DNA of 64,000 bases, taken from contig NZ_CP060694.1 of assembly GCF_014352935.1 (NCBI RefSeq), forward strand, positions 1,922,001 through 1,986,000. Reading direction: 5' to 3'. The stretch is from Aliarcobacter cryaerophilus. GTDB taxonomy: Bacteria > Campylobacterota > Campylobacteria > Campylobacterales > Arcobacteraceae. Under the pieces are notes generated by a model. The model had not been told where the DNA came from. It was given only the letters and a program-made list of their open reading frames with translations, and did not search any database. A program made the translations under genes and the position numbers. This document shows positions 17,662-22,853 of this stretch, piece after piece; within the stretch, counting starts at the first letter, position 1, and every line of letters begins with the position of its first letter.

Positions 17662-17691
17662 TCACACTTCATCACTCTTTTAAAATATAAT
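17662..17691 (+). promoter_or_regulatory. direct-repeat box and -10, TonB-receptor operon promoter
   Basis: TCACACT (17662-17668), TCA, then a degenerate second copy TCACTCT (17672-17678). Exactly 7 nt later comes TATAAT (17686-17691). The same box at the same spacing occurs at 22358 and 22824. A 10-bp repeat period overlapping the -35 position is typical of activator sites for OmpR/PhoB-type regulators, such as the one encoded at 21637. Confidence 0.65.
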
Positions 17692-17722
17692 ATTAAAAAA
17701 TCATTATTTAGGTGAATAAAAA

Positions 17723-19750
17723 GTGTATTTAAAAAAGCTTATCTTATTTTTCTCTTTCACAATAAGCTCATTTTCACAAGAGTTAGGAAATTTATTAGAT
17801 AATTTAAATAACTACACAGATAAAACTAATTTAAATATAGATTATAAACCAACTGCTATGACTGTTTTATATGCTTCTGATTTAGAATCTTTTGGAATAC
17901 ATAGTTTAGGAGAAGCTTTAGATTTTATTCCAGGTATTCAAACATACTCAGGAACTGCATTTGCTCCTTTTATATCAGTTCGTGGACAAACTCAACCTTT
18001 AAACACTATATATGAAAAAGTTGGATTTTTTATCGATGGTATTAGTATTGGTGCAAATAATTTTGAAAATTTTCCTATTAGTTTAATAGATAGAATAGAG
18101 ATATCAAAAGGTTCAACATTTGGATTAAACAATCCATATGGTTTTGTTGCAAGTATAAACATAATCACTAAAAGCTCTATCAAAAACTCAAATAATATTA
18201 GCTTTCAAACAGGAAGCTTTGATAAAAGATTTACATCTTTATCTTTAAGTGAAAAATTGGGCTCAATTGATATGGGATTAGGTTTTTACTATTTAAAAGA
18301 TAATAAAAAAGTAGATGCACCAAGTGCAACATTAACTACAGAAGAGTTTGGAACTTCTTTTGATAGAAAAAAAGAGTCTTTAGAAGGAAAAGAGGATGTT
18401 GGATTTTTATTATCATTTAAAAATGATAATTTTGAGTTTTCAAATAGATATATAAAAAGTGATAGACAAAATAACTATGGTATGTTTAATTTACTAGATT
18501 TTAATGATGATGGATATTCAAAATATGAAACTATTGCAAGTGAATTAAAATATGTACAAGATATTTCAGAGCATAATCTTCTTGAATCAAAAATAGGTTT
18601 TTTACAAAATAATTATCAATTTAATTCATATTTCTATAAACTCGAACCAAATAACCTAGGTTTATATAATCCACATTTTAATTTAGATTTTGCACAAAGA
18701 GATAAATATCTATCTTTTTTAATAAAAAATAGTACTTTTAATAATCATGAGATTGATTTTGGAGTACATCTTTCAAGAAAATCAACTGTAAAAAATGATT
18801 TTTATACAAATGTTGATGAAGATTATAAGATTGGAAGTTTAATTGGAAGCTCATATATCCCAAATACACCTCATCTTACAAAATTAAGTGGTAAAGATGG
18901 AAATATTTCAGATATAGAAGATAAAACAAATATCTCTTATTATTTTAATGATACTTACTCTTATAGTGAGAATTTAACACTCTCTTTTTTAGCAAAACTT
19001 GATGATTTTAAAGAGTTTGATAGTGCTAAAAGTTTTAAACTAGGAACAGTTTATTCAAATGACAATAAAAATATATATAAATTTATTCTATCAAAATCTA
19101 GCAAAACACCATCTTCTATGGAAGATTCAATGGTTGGGCATCTAAGAGTTTATGGTAATAAAGATTTAAAGAATGAAGAGATAGAAAGTGCTGAATTAAT
19201 ATATATTTACAGTGATAACAAAGATAAACTTAAATTAAATCTATTTTATTCTATCTATAAAAATGGTATTGATTCAAGAGAGTTTGATACAAATAAATAT
19301 AAATTTATTAATAAAAGTGACGATGAAAATAATTATGGTTTAGAGTTAGAGTATTCAAAACTATTTGAAAATCGTTCAAAACTATTTTTAAATAGTAGCT
19401 ATAATATTTTTGAATATAAAAATAGTTACTATAATTTTGATATTAATACACCTGTTGTATCTAAACTTACAACTACACTTGGATTTATCTATCCTTTAAG
19501 TTCAAAATTTACGATAAGTCCACTTTTAAGGTATTATGGAGATAAAAATCTATTAAATGGAACAGAGATTGGTGATGTTTTATTAACAGATTTAACTCTA
19601 TCATATAGGTTCTCAAAAGACTCTAAACTATCTTTTGGAGCTAAAAATCTATTTGACCAAAACTACTATTACTACGGAAATAAAACTAAAGATGAAAAGA
19701 TGCTAAGAGAAGGAAGAACTTGGTTTACAAGTTTTAGTTATGATTTCTAA
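17723..19750 (+). CDS. TonB-dependent outer-membrane receptor
   Basis: 675-aa TonB-dependent receptor. A signal peptide (MYLKKLILFFSFTISSFS) is followed by a plug domain (about residues 45-150: ESFGIHSLGEALDFIPGIQ, ISVRGQTQ) and a beta-barrel ending in a C-terminal phenylalanine (TSFSYDF). The start is GTG at 17723 with AGGTGA 7 nt upstream. No substrate can be inferred. It heads an operon with a YfiR-like periplasmic protein, a histidine kinase and a response regulator, which suggests a signalling or ligand-responsive receptor rather than a lone transporter. It is controlled by a repeat box 32 nt upstream. Confidence 0.9.
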   Translation: MYLKKLILFFSFTISSFSQELGNLLDNLNNYTDKTNLNIDYKPTAMTVLYASDLESFGIHSLGEALDFIPGIQTYSGTAFAPFISVRGQTQPLNTIYEKVGFFIDGISIGANNFENFPISLIDRIEISKGSTFGLNNPYGFVASINIITKSSIKNSNNISFQTGSFDKRFTSLSLSEKLGSIDMGLGFYYLKDNKKVDAPSATLTTEEFGTSFDRKKESLEGKEDVGFLLSFKNDNFEFSNRYIKSDRQNNYGMFNLLDFNDDGYSKYETIASELKYVQDISEHNLLESKIGFLQNNYQFNSYFYKLEPNNLGLYNPHFNLDFAQRDKYLSFLIKNSTFNNHEIDFGVHLSRKSTVKNDFYTNVDEDYKIGSLIGSSYIPNTPHLTKLSGKDGNISDIEDKTNISYYFNDTYSYSENLTLSFLAKLDDFKEFDSAKSFKLGTVYSNDNKNIYKFILSKSSKTPSSMEDSMVGHLRVYGNKDLKNEEIESAELIYIYSDNKDKLKLNLFYSIYKNGIDSREFDTNKYKFINKSDDENNYGLELEYSKLFENRSKLFLNSSYNIFEYKNSYYNFDINTPVVSKLTTTLGFIYPLSSKFTISPLLRYYGDKNLLNGTEIGDVLLTDLTLSYRFSKDSKLSFGAKNLFDQNYYYYGNKTKDEKMLREGRTWFTSFSYDF

Positions 19751-20276
19751 AAAAATATTTTTCATAATATTCTTACAATTTTCACTCTTTGCAAATAGTG
19801 TATATAATATAAATTTTTTAGATTTTCAAGCAAAAGTATTTCCAAAAATTATATTACTAGACAATAATTTTGAAGATAAGCTGTTAGAAAATAGTGTAGT
19901 TCTTACAATTTTATATGAAGAGATAGATTACAGTGTAGTAGAAATTTTAAAAGATAAGATAGAAAAAGAGTACAAATCTTTAAAAGATTATAATCTTAAA
20001 GTAAATAGTTTAAAATATAGTGAATTTAATAGAAATAAATTAAGTACAGCATATATTTTATTATTAGGAAAAGATGAAAAAATATTAGAAATATCTAAAA
20101 TCTTATCTTCTAATAGTAGACTTACTTTTGCTTATGATAATAGCTATTTGGATTTAGGAGTTATTTTTGGACTATCTATAACTTCAAAAATAGATATACT
20201 TTTAAATATTGAAGCTTTAAAAAATAGTAAAATCGAACTTCAAAACTCTATATTTAGTGTGGTAAAAATAAGATGA
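19740..20276 (+). CDS. YfiR-like periplasmic protein
   Basis: 178-aa protein with a signal peptide (MISKKIFFIIFLQFSLFANS). The C-terminal third, RLTFAYDNSYLDLGVIFGLSITSKIDILLNIEALKNSKIEL, has the strand-turn-strand pattern of the YfiR/DUF4154 family, whose members are periplasmic regulators of membrane sensor proteins. The assignment is by eye and not certain. It overlaps the receptor gene by 11 nt and the kinase gene by 4 nt, so the three are translationally coupled. I infer that it passes a signal from the receptor to the kinase. Confidence 0.6.
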   Translation: MISKKIFFIIFLQFSLFANSVYNINFLDFQAKVFPKIILLDNNFEDKLLENSVVLTILYEEIDYSVVEILKDKIEKEYKSLKDYNLKVNSLKYSEFNRNKLSTAYILLLGKDEKILEISKILSSNSRLTFAYDNSYLDLGVIFGLSITSKIDILLNIEALKNSKIELQNSIFSVVKIR

Positions 20277-21640
20277 GAAATCTAAGTATTGTAACTCAAA
20301 TAGCTATTATCAATATTTTTGTTTTTACTATTTTTATATCAATATTTATATATAAAAATTACGCTATTGTATCAAACCAGTTCGTTTTACTTCAAAATGA
20401 AAAGATTGATTCTATTATAAAAACTATATCTCCAGTAATCTCTATAAATTTAACTCTAGGTTTAGAAAACAATATAAAAGAGATTGTAAATGATAGTATC
20501 AAACTACATAAAGAGTTAGTTGGAATTGAGGTAACAAATAGCAACAATAAAATTGTATATAAAAATATAAATAGTGATATAAAAAATTCAAAAATTTATC
20601 ATACTATTTTAGAAGATACTATTTTAAAATCAAAGCTTGGTGAATTAAAGGTATTTTATACTTTTTCATCTATTTACTCAAAACTTTTAACTGAATTTTA
20701 TCAATTCTTAATTTTCATTGCTATCTTTTTTATTTTTTCTCTATTATTATCTTCATATTTAATTAAATATAACCTAAAGCCACTTATCAAATTAAAAGAG
20801 GGGATGAAAAATTATAGCTTAGAAAAAAATAGTACTTTAAAAGAAGATGAGTTTAAAAATGAGATCTCTGTAATAAATAATAGTGCAGTAAAAATGGTAA
20901 AAAAAATCGAAGAAGAGCTTGAAAAAAGAATTTTATATGAAAAAGAGATTATGCAAAAGAATCGTCTTGCCTCTATGGGTGAAATGATTGACAATATAGC
21001 ACATCAATGGCGACAACCTCTTATGAAAATAAATGCAATAGTTTTAAATACAGATAGAAGTATTGAACTTAAAAAATATGATGAAAAATATTTACAAAAT
21101 AGATTAGATGATATATCACAAGCTGTATATCATATGTCAAATACAATAGATACATTTAGAGAGTTTTTAAATCCACACAAATCTAAAGAGAGTTTTGAAA
21201 TATCAAACTCTATAAATAAAAGTTTAAAGGTTTTAAATACTTTATTAGTAGATATAGAGGTAAATATTAATCAAAAAGAGATTTATATAAATGCTTATGA
21301 AAGTGAATTTATGCAAGTTATAATATCTATATTATCAAATTCAATAGATATATTTAAAGCAAGAGATATAGAAAAAAAATATATAAATATAGATATTTAC
21401 GAAGATGATATTCACTATTTTATATCTATAAAAGATAGTGCTGGTGGTATAAAAGAGGATATTATAGATAAAATATTTGAACCATATTTCACAACAAAAC
21501 ATAAAAGTGGAGGTACTGGAATGGGCTTATATATCTCTAAACTTATTATACAAAGTAGTTTCAAAGGTGATATAAAAGTAAAAGCTGTAGATAATGGAGT
21601 AAAATTTATATTAGAAATACCAAAAGGAAAAGAGTTTTGA
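20273..21640 (+). CDS. sensor histidine kinase
   Basis: 455-aa membrane kinase. Two transmembrane helices (about residues 8-28 and 144-164) frame a periplasmic sensor of some 115 residues without a recognised domain. A HAMP-like linker and coiled coil lead to the phosphoacceptor H244 in NIAHQWRQPL, a variant H-box common in Campylobacterota. The ATPase domain shows the N box (VIISILSNSID), DSAGGI, FEPYFTT and GTGMGLY. It is encoded between a YfiR-like protein and its regulator with 4-nt overlaps on both sides. The input is probably the receptor or the YfiR-like protein. Confidence 0.92.
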   Translation: MRNLSIVTQIAIINIFVFTIFISIFIYKNYAIVSNQFVLLQNEKIDSIIKTISPVISINLTLGLENNIKEIVNDSIKLHKELVGIEVTNSNNKIVYKNINSDIKNSKIYHTILEDTILKSKLGELKVFYTFSSIYSKLLTEFYQFLIFIAIFFIFSLLLSSYLIKYNLKPLIKLKEGMKNYSLEKNSTLKEDEFKNEISVINNSAVKMVKKIEEELEKRILYEKEIMQKNRLASMGEMIDNIAHQWRQPLMKINAIVLNTDRSIELKKYDEKYLQNRLDDISQAVYHMSNTIDTFREFLNPHKSKESFEISNSINKSLKVLNTLLVDIEVNINQKEIYINAYESEFMQVIISILSNSIDIFKARDIEKKYINIDIYEDDIHYFISIKDSAGGIKEDIIDKIFEPYFTTKHKSGGTGMGLYISKLIIQSSFKGDIKVKAVDNGVKFILEIPKGKEF

Positions 21641-22323
21641 GAGAAAATTTAAAAAATTTTACATTGCTTTATGCTGAAGATGATAAAGCTATTCAAAAAG
21701 AGATGTTGGAGTATTTTTCTAGCTATTTTAAAGAGGTTTTTACTGCAAATGATGGTAAAGAAGCTTTAGAAATATATAAACAAAATAGACCTGATGTTAT
21801 GATACTTGATATTTATATGCCTCATTTAACAGGAATTGAATTAACAAAAATTTTAAGAGAAAATGACTATAAAACAAAAATAGTTTTAATAACTGCACAC
21901 TCAAACGACACTTTACTTTTGGAAGCCATAAACATAGATGTAAATTACTATTTAATAAAACCAGCAACTTTGAAAAAAGTAAAAGATATGCTTGATAAAA
22001 TCTCTATTGATTTATTAAGAAGCTCTGAAAAAATAGTAAGATTTGATGAAAATATATATTTTAATCAAACTAGTAAAAAACTCTATAATAAAAATATTGA
22101 GCTAAAACTTAGTAAAAAAGAGCTCTCTTTGCTAGAACTTTTTATAATAAATAGAAATAAAGATATAACTATTGAAGATATTATGTCTCATTGCTGGAGT
22201 GATATTTTTATTGAAGTATCACTTGATAGTGTAAAATCTTTGGTTAGTAACTTAAGAAAAAAACTTCCAAAAGATACTATTTTAAATGTTTATGGTGTTG
22301 GTTACATTTTAAAAAATAGTTAA
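21637..22323 (+). CDS. OmpR/PhoB-family response regulator
   Basis: 228-aa regulator. The receiver has the acidic pocket (E14, D15, D16), phosphoacceptor D58 (MILDIYMP), VLITAH and the lysine in LIKPA. A C-terminal winged-helix DNA-binding domain (about 135-228) contains LSKKELSLLELFI and ends NVYGVGYILK. The start is TTG at 21637, overlapping the kinase stop, with AAGGA about 10 nt upstream. It is the best candidate to bind the TCACACT repeats upstream of its own operon and the two neighbouring ones. A terminator overlaps its end. Confidence 0.92.
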   Translation: MRENLKNFTLLYAEDDKAIQKEMLEYFSSYFKEVFTANDGKEALEIYKQNRPDVMILDIYMPHLTGIELTKILRENDYKTKIVLITAHSNDTLLLEAINIDVNYYLIKPATLKKVKDMLDKISIDLLRSSEKIVRFDENIYFNQTSKKLYNKNIELKLSKKELSLLELFIINRNKDITIEDIMSHCWSDIFIEVSLDSVKSLVSNLRKKLPKDTILNVYGVGYILKNS

Positions 22324-22348
22324 AATCTTAAATTTAACTATTTTTTTA
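22315..22348 (+). terminator. rho-independent terminator after response regulator
   Basis: A 10-bp stem AATAGTTAAA/TTTAACTATT (22315-22324 and 22333-22342) with an 8-nt loop is followed by a run of T. It ends the TonB-receptor/sensor operon and makes the next repeat box (22358) a separate promoter. Confidence 0.75.
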
Positions 22349-22357
22349 TTAAAAACT

Positions 22358-22387
22358 TCACACTTCATCACACTCTTTTTTTATAAT
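22358..22387 (+). promoter_or_regulatory. direct-repeat box and -10, promoter of the two tiny genes
   Basis: TCACACT (22358-22364), TCA, TCACACT (22368-22374), 7 nt, then TATAAT (22382-22387). This is the perfect form of the box. It lies 33 nt before the start of the 43-aa gene. Confidence 0.7.
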
Positions 22388-22419
22388 TCACTTCTAGGAA
22401 ACAATTTATAGGATATTAC

Positions 22420-22551
22420 ATGTTAATTAATTATATAAATCATAACTATCAAAACATTGAGATTGCAAATAAGGGGATTTGCAATTTTATTATATTTGAA
22501 ATAGAAGAAGAGTTTGAAATAGATGATGAAGATAGTTGGATTAAGATCTAA
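22420..22551 (+). CDS. 43-aa acidic small protein, unknown
   Basis: A short open frame from an ATG at 22420 with AGGA 6 nt upstream. The product is 43 aa and begins MLINYINHNYQNIEIANKG. Its C-terminal half is very acidic (EIEEEFEIDDEDSWIKI) and there is no signal peptide. I recognise no family. Support comes from its position: it is the first gene after a regulator-type promoter box and is followed 20 nt later by another small gene with its own ribosome site. It might be a small regulator or a modulator of the neighbouring system, but nothing shows this directly. Confidence 0.5.
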   Translation: MLINYINHNYQNIEIANKGICNFIIFEIEEEFEIDDEDSWIKI

Positions 22552-22571
22552 TTATATATTTAGGAGTTAGT

Positions 22572-22757
22572 TTGGAAGATATTATTGTTTCAAAAGATGA
22601 GTTAATAGAGCTATTTGAAACAGAAAAAATAATTGATACTGGAAAAGGTTGGTATATGGATAATAGTTTTGTAAATATTATCGCACTGCATGAGATTGAA
22701 CCAAAGTTTCTTCAAAATATTACAAATGCTAAGTTTTATAAAATAATAAAAAAATAG
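22572..22757 (+). CDS. 61-aa small protein, unknown
   Basis: 61-aa protein starting at a TTG (22572) with AGGAG 6 nt upstream. It is soluble, with no signal peptide or membrane segment. It starts MEDIIVSKDELIELFETEKI and contains a central GKGWYMDNSFVNIIAL. No family is recognised. It is the second gene of the small transcription unit under the second TCACACT box, between the sensor operon and the two-partner secretion genes. Shared regulation suggests a link to that system; function is unknown. Confidence 0.55.
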   Translation: MEDIIVSKDELIELFETEKIIDTGKGWYMDNSFVNIIALHEIEPKFLQNITNAKFYKIIKK

Positions 22758-22823
22758 ATAGTTTTAAACTCTTTCAAATTCCATTTAAAAATCCCCAAAT
22801 TTCTTAAAAAAAGTCTAAAAACT

Positions 22824-22853
22824 TCACACTTCATCACACTCTTTATCTACAAT
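22824..22853 (+). promoter_or_regulatory. direct-repeat box and -10, two-partner secretion promoter
   Basis: TCACACT (22824-22830), TCA, TCACACT (22834-22840), 7 nt, then TACAAT (22848-22853). Box and spacing are the same as at 22358. It lies 38 nt before the start of the large secreted protein gene. Confidence 0.7.

What the first reader, a model, noticed from the sequence alone, without database searches (positions are those of the whole stretch)
17662..22853. Three identical promoter boxes define a small regulon around a TonB-receptor/two-component system
TCACACT-TCA-TCACACT occurs at 22358 and 22824, and as TCACACT-TCA-TCACTCT at 17662. In all three cases a -10-like hexamer (TATAAT, TATAAT, TACAAT) begins exactly 7 nt after the repeat. 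Repeats with a helical-turn period that replace the -35 region are the known binding mode of OmpR/PhoB-class activators, and one is encoded in the first operon (21637). The three targets are the receptor-YfiR-kinase-regulator operon, two tiny genes and the two-partner secretion operon. I infer positive autoregulation and joint control of a surface adhesin.
Basis: partly seen in the sequence, partly recalled or inferred. Interest (0 to 1): 0.82.

Follow-up and report, generated by a model that had tools for sequence, protein, structure and literature searches.

The report
Dedicated regulator box controlling surface adhesin
In this Aliarcobacter-type bacterium a sensor–regulator pair almost certainly switches on its own operon, two tiny genes and a secreted adhesin through one exact 17-letter DNA box that occurs nowhere else in the genome, and the same regulator–box pair recurs in distantly related bacteria.

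Summary
Boxes lie at 17662, 22358 and 22824, each exactly 7 nt before a -10 hexamer. They are the only three matches (up to 1 mismatch) in the complete 2.02-Mb genome. The three-box layout recurs in three related species (two boxes in a fourth); across species the box is 98% identical and its flanks about 55%. The box tracks the operon's own OmpR/PhoB-type regulator: it is missing from family genomes without the regulator, apart from one deletion remnant. The same 17-mer, with the same 7-nt spacing, lies beside a 44%-identical regulator in another family of the order. Regulators near a box share recognition-helix residue Ser198 (11 of 11, against 0 of 62 others). Two further regulators with the signature, found afterwards, also had boxes, altered ones; six regulators without it, searched alongside, had none. 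Best reading: the phosphorylated regulator binds as a tandem dimer over -36 to -20 and activates its own operon, two small genes and a two-partner secretion adhesin. Binding is strongly supported; activation rather than repression is inferred; the signal is unknown. The "YfiR" label is not supported. Kind: a new regulon of a known type.

The parts
17662..17678 (+). Box 1 (TCACACTTCATCACTCT), promoter of the receptor-kinase-regulator operon
17686..17691 (+). -10 hexamer TATAAT of P1
   Evidence: conserved in 5 species
17723..19750 (+). TonB-dependent receptor, 675 aa (plug at residues 43-132, so no room for a FecA-type signalling domain)
   Evidence: Pfam PF00593/PF07715
19740..20276 (+). 178-aa protein with signal-like N-terminus, family unassigned ('YfiR' not supported)
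   Evidence: within the genus, orthologues only in genomes with the system
20273..21640 (+). Sensor histidine kinase, 455 aa
   Evidence: PF02518; kinase core 44% identical to the box-linked kinase of G214, sensor part unrelated
21637..22323 (+). OmpR/PhoB-type response regulator, 228 aa
   Evidence: PF00072+PF00486; box-linked branch
22219..22263 (+). Codons of the recognition helix SLDSVKSLVSNLRKK (residues 195-209)
   Evidence: Ser198 11/11 box-linked vs 0/62 other regulators
22311..22346 (+). Perfect 14-bp hairpin followed by Ts: likely terminator of the first operon, ending just before box 2
   Evidence: -10 kcal/mol, z -4.35
22358..22374 (+). Box 2 (TCACACTTCATCACACT), promoter of the two small genes
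22382..22387 (+). -10 hexamer TATAAT of P2
22420..22551 (+). Small gene, 43 aa
   Evidence: reading frame kept in 4 species; in-frame repeat expansion in G013
22572..22757 (+). Small gene, 61 aa; second copy of a family found in 94 of 104 genomes of the bacterial family
   Evidence: third-position changes dominate between the more distant species
22824..22840 (+). Box 3 (TCACACTTCATCACACT), promoter of the two-partner secretion operon
22848..22853 (+). -10 hexamer TACAAT of P3
22891..26274 (+). TpsA: TPS secretion domain plus GLUG repeats, 1127 aa, adhesin-type
   Evidence: PF05860, PF07581; TIGR01901
26291..27955 (+). TpsB: ShlB/FhaC-type transporter with POTRA domain, 554 aa
   Evidence: PF03865, PF08479
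27965..27982 (.). Palindromic terminator-like hairpin after tpsB, usable from both strands

Best explanation
The operon at 17723-22323 encodes a receptor, a small exported protein, a sensor kinase and an OmpR/PhoB-type regulator. When the kinase phosphorylates the regulator (at Asp58), two molecules bind head-to-tail on the direct repeat TCACACT-TCA-TCACACT (10-bp period). This places them over about -36 to -20 of three promoters that have no -35 hexamer, and they recruit RNA polymerase to the -10. The result is positive feedback on the operon itself and joint switching on of a pair of small genes and a two-partner secretion adhesin. Shown by sequence: the boxes, their uniqueness and conservation, their coupling to the regulator and its recognition helix, three separate promoters. 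Inferred: binding in vitro, activation, the input signal, adhesion.
For: Only three sites in the whole genome, all at promoters in one 5.2-kb stretch. Same three boxes in G007, G013, G030 and two in G028 (which lacks the small genes), all 7 nt before a -10; box identity 98% and -10 identity 95%, against 56% upstream and 53% downstream. Regulator orthologues of 70% or more occur only in those genomes and in G005, where an insertion sequence splits the gene. Outside the family, G214 has two exact boxes beside a 44%-identical regulator, and G203, G225, G168 and G156 have variants beside its orthologues, all at 7 nt. Box-linked regulators form one branch and share Ser198 (11/11 vs 0/62) and Ser204 (11/11 vs 6%) in the recognition helix. 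Out-of-sample test: G431 and G264 carry the helix signature with changes next to it, and have altered boxes at exactly 7 nt; six control regions had none. A perfect hairpin ends operon 1 before box 2. Mycobacterium PhoP (5ED4) reads direct repeats of TCACAGC with helix residues aligned to these (PMC4832192). [quoted passage not shown]
Against: No binding or expression data. The 10-bp period differs from the 11 bp of mycobacterial PhoP, in which a 3-bp spacer cut affinity about 20-fold (PMC4832192). In Salmonella PhoP a box moved to 7 nt from the -10 gave little expression (PMC3335776), so the geometry here must be its own. The support for the box-linked branch is moderate (SH-aLRT 80).
Confidence: 0.82

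Rival explanations
1. The regulator binds the boxes but represses: sitting on -36 to -20 it blocks RNA polymerase, and the signal lifts repression.
For: The box overlaps the core promoter and ends only 7 nt from the -10, closer than the 12 nt of Salmonella PhoP class II sites; a PhoP box moved to 7 nt hardly worked (PMC3335776).
Against: The promoters have no -35 hexamer or extended -10 of their own, so they look activator-dependent; PceP, from the same order, is held to activate from repeats on both sides of the -35 box (PMC7755780); the identical 7-nt spacing at targets in several families points to a fixed contact with polymerase.
Confidence: 0.12
2. The box is a site for another factor (a global regulator or a promoter class), and the linkage to this regulator is incidental.
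For: No direct binding evidence; related genomes hold many paralogous regulators.
Against: Family genomes without a regulator of this type have no box at a promoter except the G008 deletion remnant; other 17-mer matches in the order lie inside genes without a -10; helix and box covary.
Confidence: 0.04
3. Recent duplication of a promoter fragment with no regulatory meaning.
For: Boxes 2 and 3 share a few flanking bases (aaaaact...cttt).
Against: The three boxes persist in several species with 53-56% identical flanks, and recur in other families of the order.
Confidence: 0.02

Closest known systems
PhoP of Mycobacterium tuberculosis (structure 5ED4, PMC4832192)
   Same: OmpR/PhoB-family regulator; tandem dimer on a direct repeat of a 7-bp half-site starting TCACA; helix ESYVSYLRRK aligns with KSLVSNLRKK here, with two serines in common
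   Different: Spacer 4 bp instead of 3 (period 11 vs 10); most base-contacting residues differ; distant homology over the whole protein; another phylum
PceP/PceS of Sulfurospirillum (PMC7755780)
   Same: Same bacterial order; OmpR-type regulator with its own kinase; small local regulon including its own operon; [quoted passage not shown] activation inferred by its authors from induction; regulator genes disrupted by transposases in some strains, as in G005
   Different: Repeat CTATW spaced 17 bp; controls tetrachloroethene respiration; the site at its own operon lies 85 bp upstream
PhoB / Pho boxes (PMC4415409) and Salmonella PhoP class II promoters (PMC3335776)
   Same: Direct repeats that take the place of the -35 hexamer, head-to-tail regulator dimer, autoregulation
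   Different: 11-bp period (own knowledge for PhoB); Salmonella PhoP box 12 nt from the -10; no orthology to PhoB (82.5 of 296.2 bits)
hecA/hecB of Arcobacter butzleri (PMC2147049)
   Same: Filamentous-haemagglutinin-type two-partner secretion pair in the same group of bacteria
   Different: Orthology not tested here; the passages read assign no regulator to them

Membership tests
OmpR/PhoB-family response regulator | Receiver domain plus winged-helix Trans_reg_C domain | tested here: met
   PF00072 and PF00486 above cut-off
OmpR/PhoB-family response regulator | Conserved phospho-acceptor Asp in the receiver | tested here: met
   Asp58 in LDIYMP, invariant in the three aligned orthologues
OmpR/PhoB-family response regulator | Binding of direct repeats about one helical turn apart | not testable with these tools
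   Inferred from box conservation and helix-box covariation
PhoB orthologue | PhoB equivalog score | tested here: not met
   82.5 bits against a cut-off of 296.2
Two-partner secretion system | TpsA with TPS domain next to TpsB with POTRA and ShlB domains | tested here: met
   PF05860; PF08479 and PF03865
FecA-type TonB transducer | N-terminal periplasmic signalling domain before the plug | tested here: not met
   Plug starts at residue 43; no such domain found
   No Pfam match for this protein up to E 10, no relevant NCBIfam or PDB match; model confidence too low for a fold search (pLDDT 49)

The most novel reading that the evidence does not exclude
The regulator and its box form a conserved output module that keeps the same 17-bp site and 7-nt spacing across families of the Campylobacterales, while sensors and targets are exchanged around it (receptor plus TPS adhesin in Aliarcobacter; other kinases with large secreted proteins elsewhere). 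Recognition-helix position 197 sets the second base of the half-site: Asp with C/T, Gln with A, Gly with G.
Probability: 0.35. Interest if true: 0.66.

Novelty: new member of a known kind. Interest (0 to 1): 0.55.

Why it matters
No paper found in the searches made here describes the control of two-partner secretion adhesins in Aliarcobacter. Here a regulator, its exact binding box, and a closed list of three target promoters can be named from sequence, so one shift assay and one deletion mutant would settle it. The series of related regulators with slightly different helices and boxes is also a natural data set for how this large regulator family chooses its DNA sites.

Tried and rejected
Other 17-mer matches in the order (G397, G479, G353, G109, G118) and one in a viral contig lie inside genes without a -10 at the right place: chance. 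The YfiR label: no profile or PDB support, and the AlphaFold model was too poor for a fold search. The regulator model (pLDDT 60) was not used for DNA-contact claims. Naming the window's species was not attempted beyond its genus: G028 and G030, called same genus, hold contigs of the same length as Arcobacter vandammei and Aliarcobacter vitoriensis records. A literature search for the Campylobacter DccR direct repeat, remembered as similar, returned nothing usable, so it is not evidence here.

Full report
What was checked. An unbiased scan for any spaced 7-mer repeat 7 nt before TANAAT finds only these three in the 64-kb window; simulated sequences give 0.2 per window and never a shared half-site. 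In the complete genome (one contig, 2,020,388 bases) there are three matches with at most one mismatch, all here. Of the 11 sites with two mismatches, nine lie inside open reading frames and two lack a -10 at +7. The regulon in this genome is therefore predicted to be exactly three promoters.

Anatomy. P1 drives a TonB-dependent receptor, a 178-aa protein with a signal-like N-terminus, a histidine kinase and an OmpR/PhoB-type regulator; their reading frames overlap, so they form one operon. A perfect 14-bp hairpin followed by Ts ends this operon and box 2 follows 11 nt later. P2 drives two small genes. They look like real genes: the frames are kept in four species, in the 61-aa gene most changes between the more distant species fall at third codon positions, and the 43-aa gene has an in-frame 18-bp repeat expansion in one species. 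P3 drives tpsA (TPS domain, GLUG repeats) and tpsB (ShlB, POTRA), followed by a palindromic terminator-like hairpin.

Related genomes. Among 104 genomes of the family, the 17-mer (up to 1 mismatch) occurs three times in G000, G007, G013 and G030, twice in G028, and once each in G005, G008 and G089; the reversed control pattern gave none. Regulator orthologues of 70% identity or more occur only in G000, G007, G013, G030, G028 and, split by an insertion sequence, G005. G028 lacks the small genes and also lacks that box. G008 keeps only a box and the start of the receptor frame. In G005 the box lies in front of a gene for a binding-protein/GGDEF protein that precedes the receptor. In species pairs more distant than the two close pairs, mean identity is 98% in the box, 95% in the -10, 56% upstream and 53% downstream. 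Second TPS systems in G000 and G013, and relatives at 57-60% in G009 and G024, have no box: the box follows the regulator, not the TPS genes.

Beyond the family. A scan of 399 genomes of the order for box plus 7 nt plus -10 found two exact boxes in G214, in another family; the reversed control gave one chance match each in two genomes, and one further match (G220) was not linked to this regulator type. The first G214 box starts just after the stop codon of a kinase-regulator pair; both precede large proteins with lipoprotein-like N-termini. The regulator is 44% identical to the window's; the kinase core is 44% identical but the sensor half is unrelated. Orthologues of that regulator in G203, G225, G168 and G156 also have the box, as TYACACTTSATYACMCT, at the same 7-nt spacing and in front of large secreted-type proteins. 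G089, in another genus of the window's family, has the box just downstream of a partial regulator gene of this type. Other matches in the order that were examined are inside genes and have no -10.

Helix-box covariation. In a tree of 73 regulators the ten box-linked ones form one side of a branch (SH-aLRT 80). In the recognition helix Ser198 is present in 11 of 11 box-linked and 0 of 62 other regulators, and Ser204 in 11 of 11 against 6%. As an out-of-sample test the order was searched again with the G214 regulator. Two further regulators carry the signature with changes beside it: G431 (SIQSVKFQVTLLRKK) and G264 (SIGSVKSLVSKLRKK). Both have boxes at exactly 7 nt: TAACACTTCATAACGCT in G431, and TGACACTCTATGACACT (in front of the regulator gene) and TGACACTTCGTAACACT (in front of the next operon) in G264. 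Six control regions around regulators without the signature had none. So Asp197 goes with TC or TT, Gln197 with TA, and Gly197 mostly with TG. This is a pattern in few lineages, not a proven code.

Mechanism. Mycobacterial PhoP reads direct repeats of TCACAGC with its recognition helix in the major groove; its residues Asn212, Val213, Glu215, Ser216, Tyr217 and Tyr220 contact bases (PMC4832192). By alignment on the shared LR(R/K)K these correspond to positions 197, 198, 200, 201, 202 and 205 here (inference). With the usual numbering the box covers about -36 to -20. The promoters have no recognisable -35 or extended -10, which argues for activation. PceP of Sulfurospirillum, in the same order, binds direct repeats on both sides of the -35 box and is held by its authors to activate (PMC7755780). 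Against this, a Salmonella PhoP box set 7 nt from the -10 worked poorly (PMC3335776), so repression stays possible (about 12%). The receptor's plug begins at residue 43, leaving no room for a FecA-type signalling domain; how the receptor or the 178-aa protein informs the kinase is unknown.

Verdict. It is a new regulon of a well-known type; its unusual strength is how tightly regulator, helix and box travel together across families.

Noticed in passing
window 22572-22757; G000:C1:1192086-1192265 (in L155): The 61-aa protein is a second copy of a small family present in 94 of 104 genomes of the bacterial family; in all four core loci examined that copy sits directly downstream of another regulator-type gene, suggesting a small partner of regulators.
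   Followed up: partly
L060, G013 copy of the 43-aa gene: An 18-bp in-frame tandem repeat (EEEFEI) lengthens the protein from 43 to 79 residues.
   Followed up: no
L063:13658-15040: In G005 the regulator gene is split by a transposase gene (DDE_Tnp_1), much as the PCE regulator gene is disrupted by transposases in some Sulfurospirillum strains (PMC7755780).
   Followed up: no
L064 (G008): Remnant of the system: one box and a 65-residue start of the receptor, near an unrelated kinase-regulator pair.
   Followed up: no
tpsA in window, L059, L060, L061, L062: TpsA length varies widely between species (1127, 1402, 1667, 1561 and 2092 aa) while its N-terminal secretion part is conserved.
   Followed up: no
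L145, L146: A sister group of regulators (G214, G128) follows a long protein that resembles the NMT1-type binding proteins; a similar binding-protein/GGDEF gene is the first gene after the box in G005.
   Followed up: no
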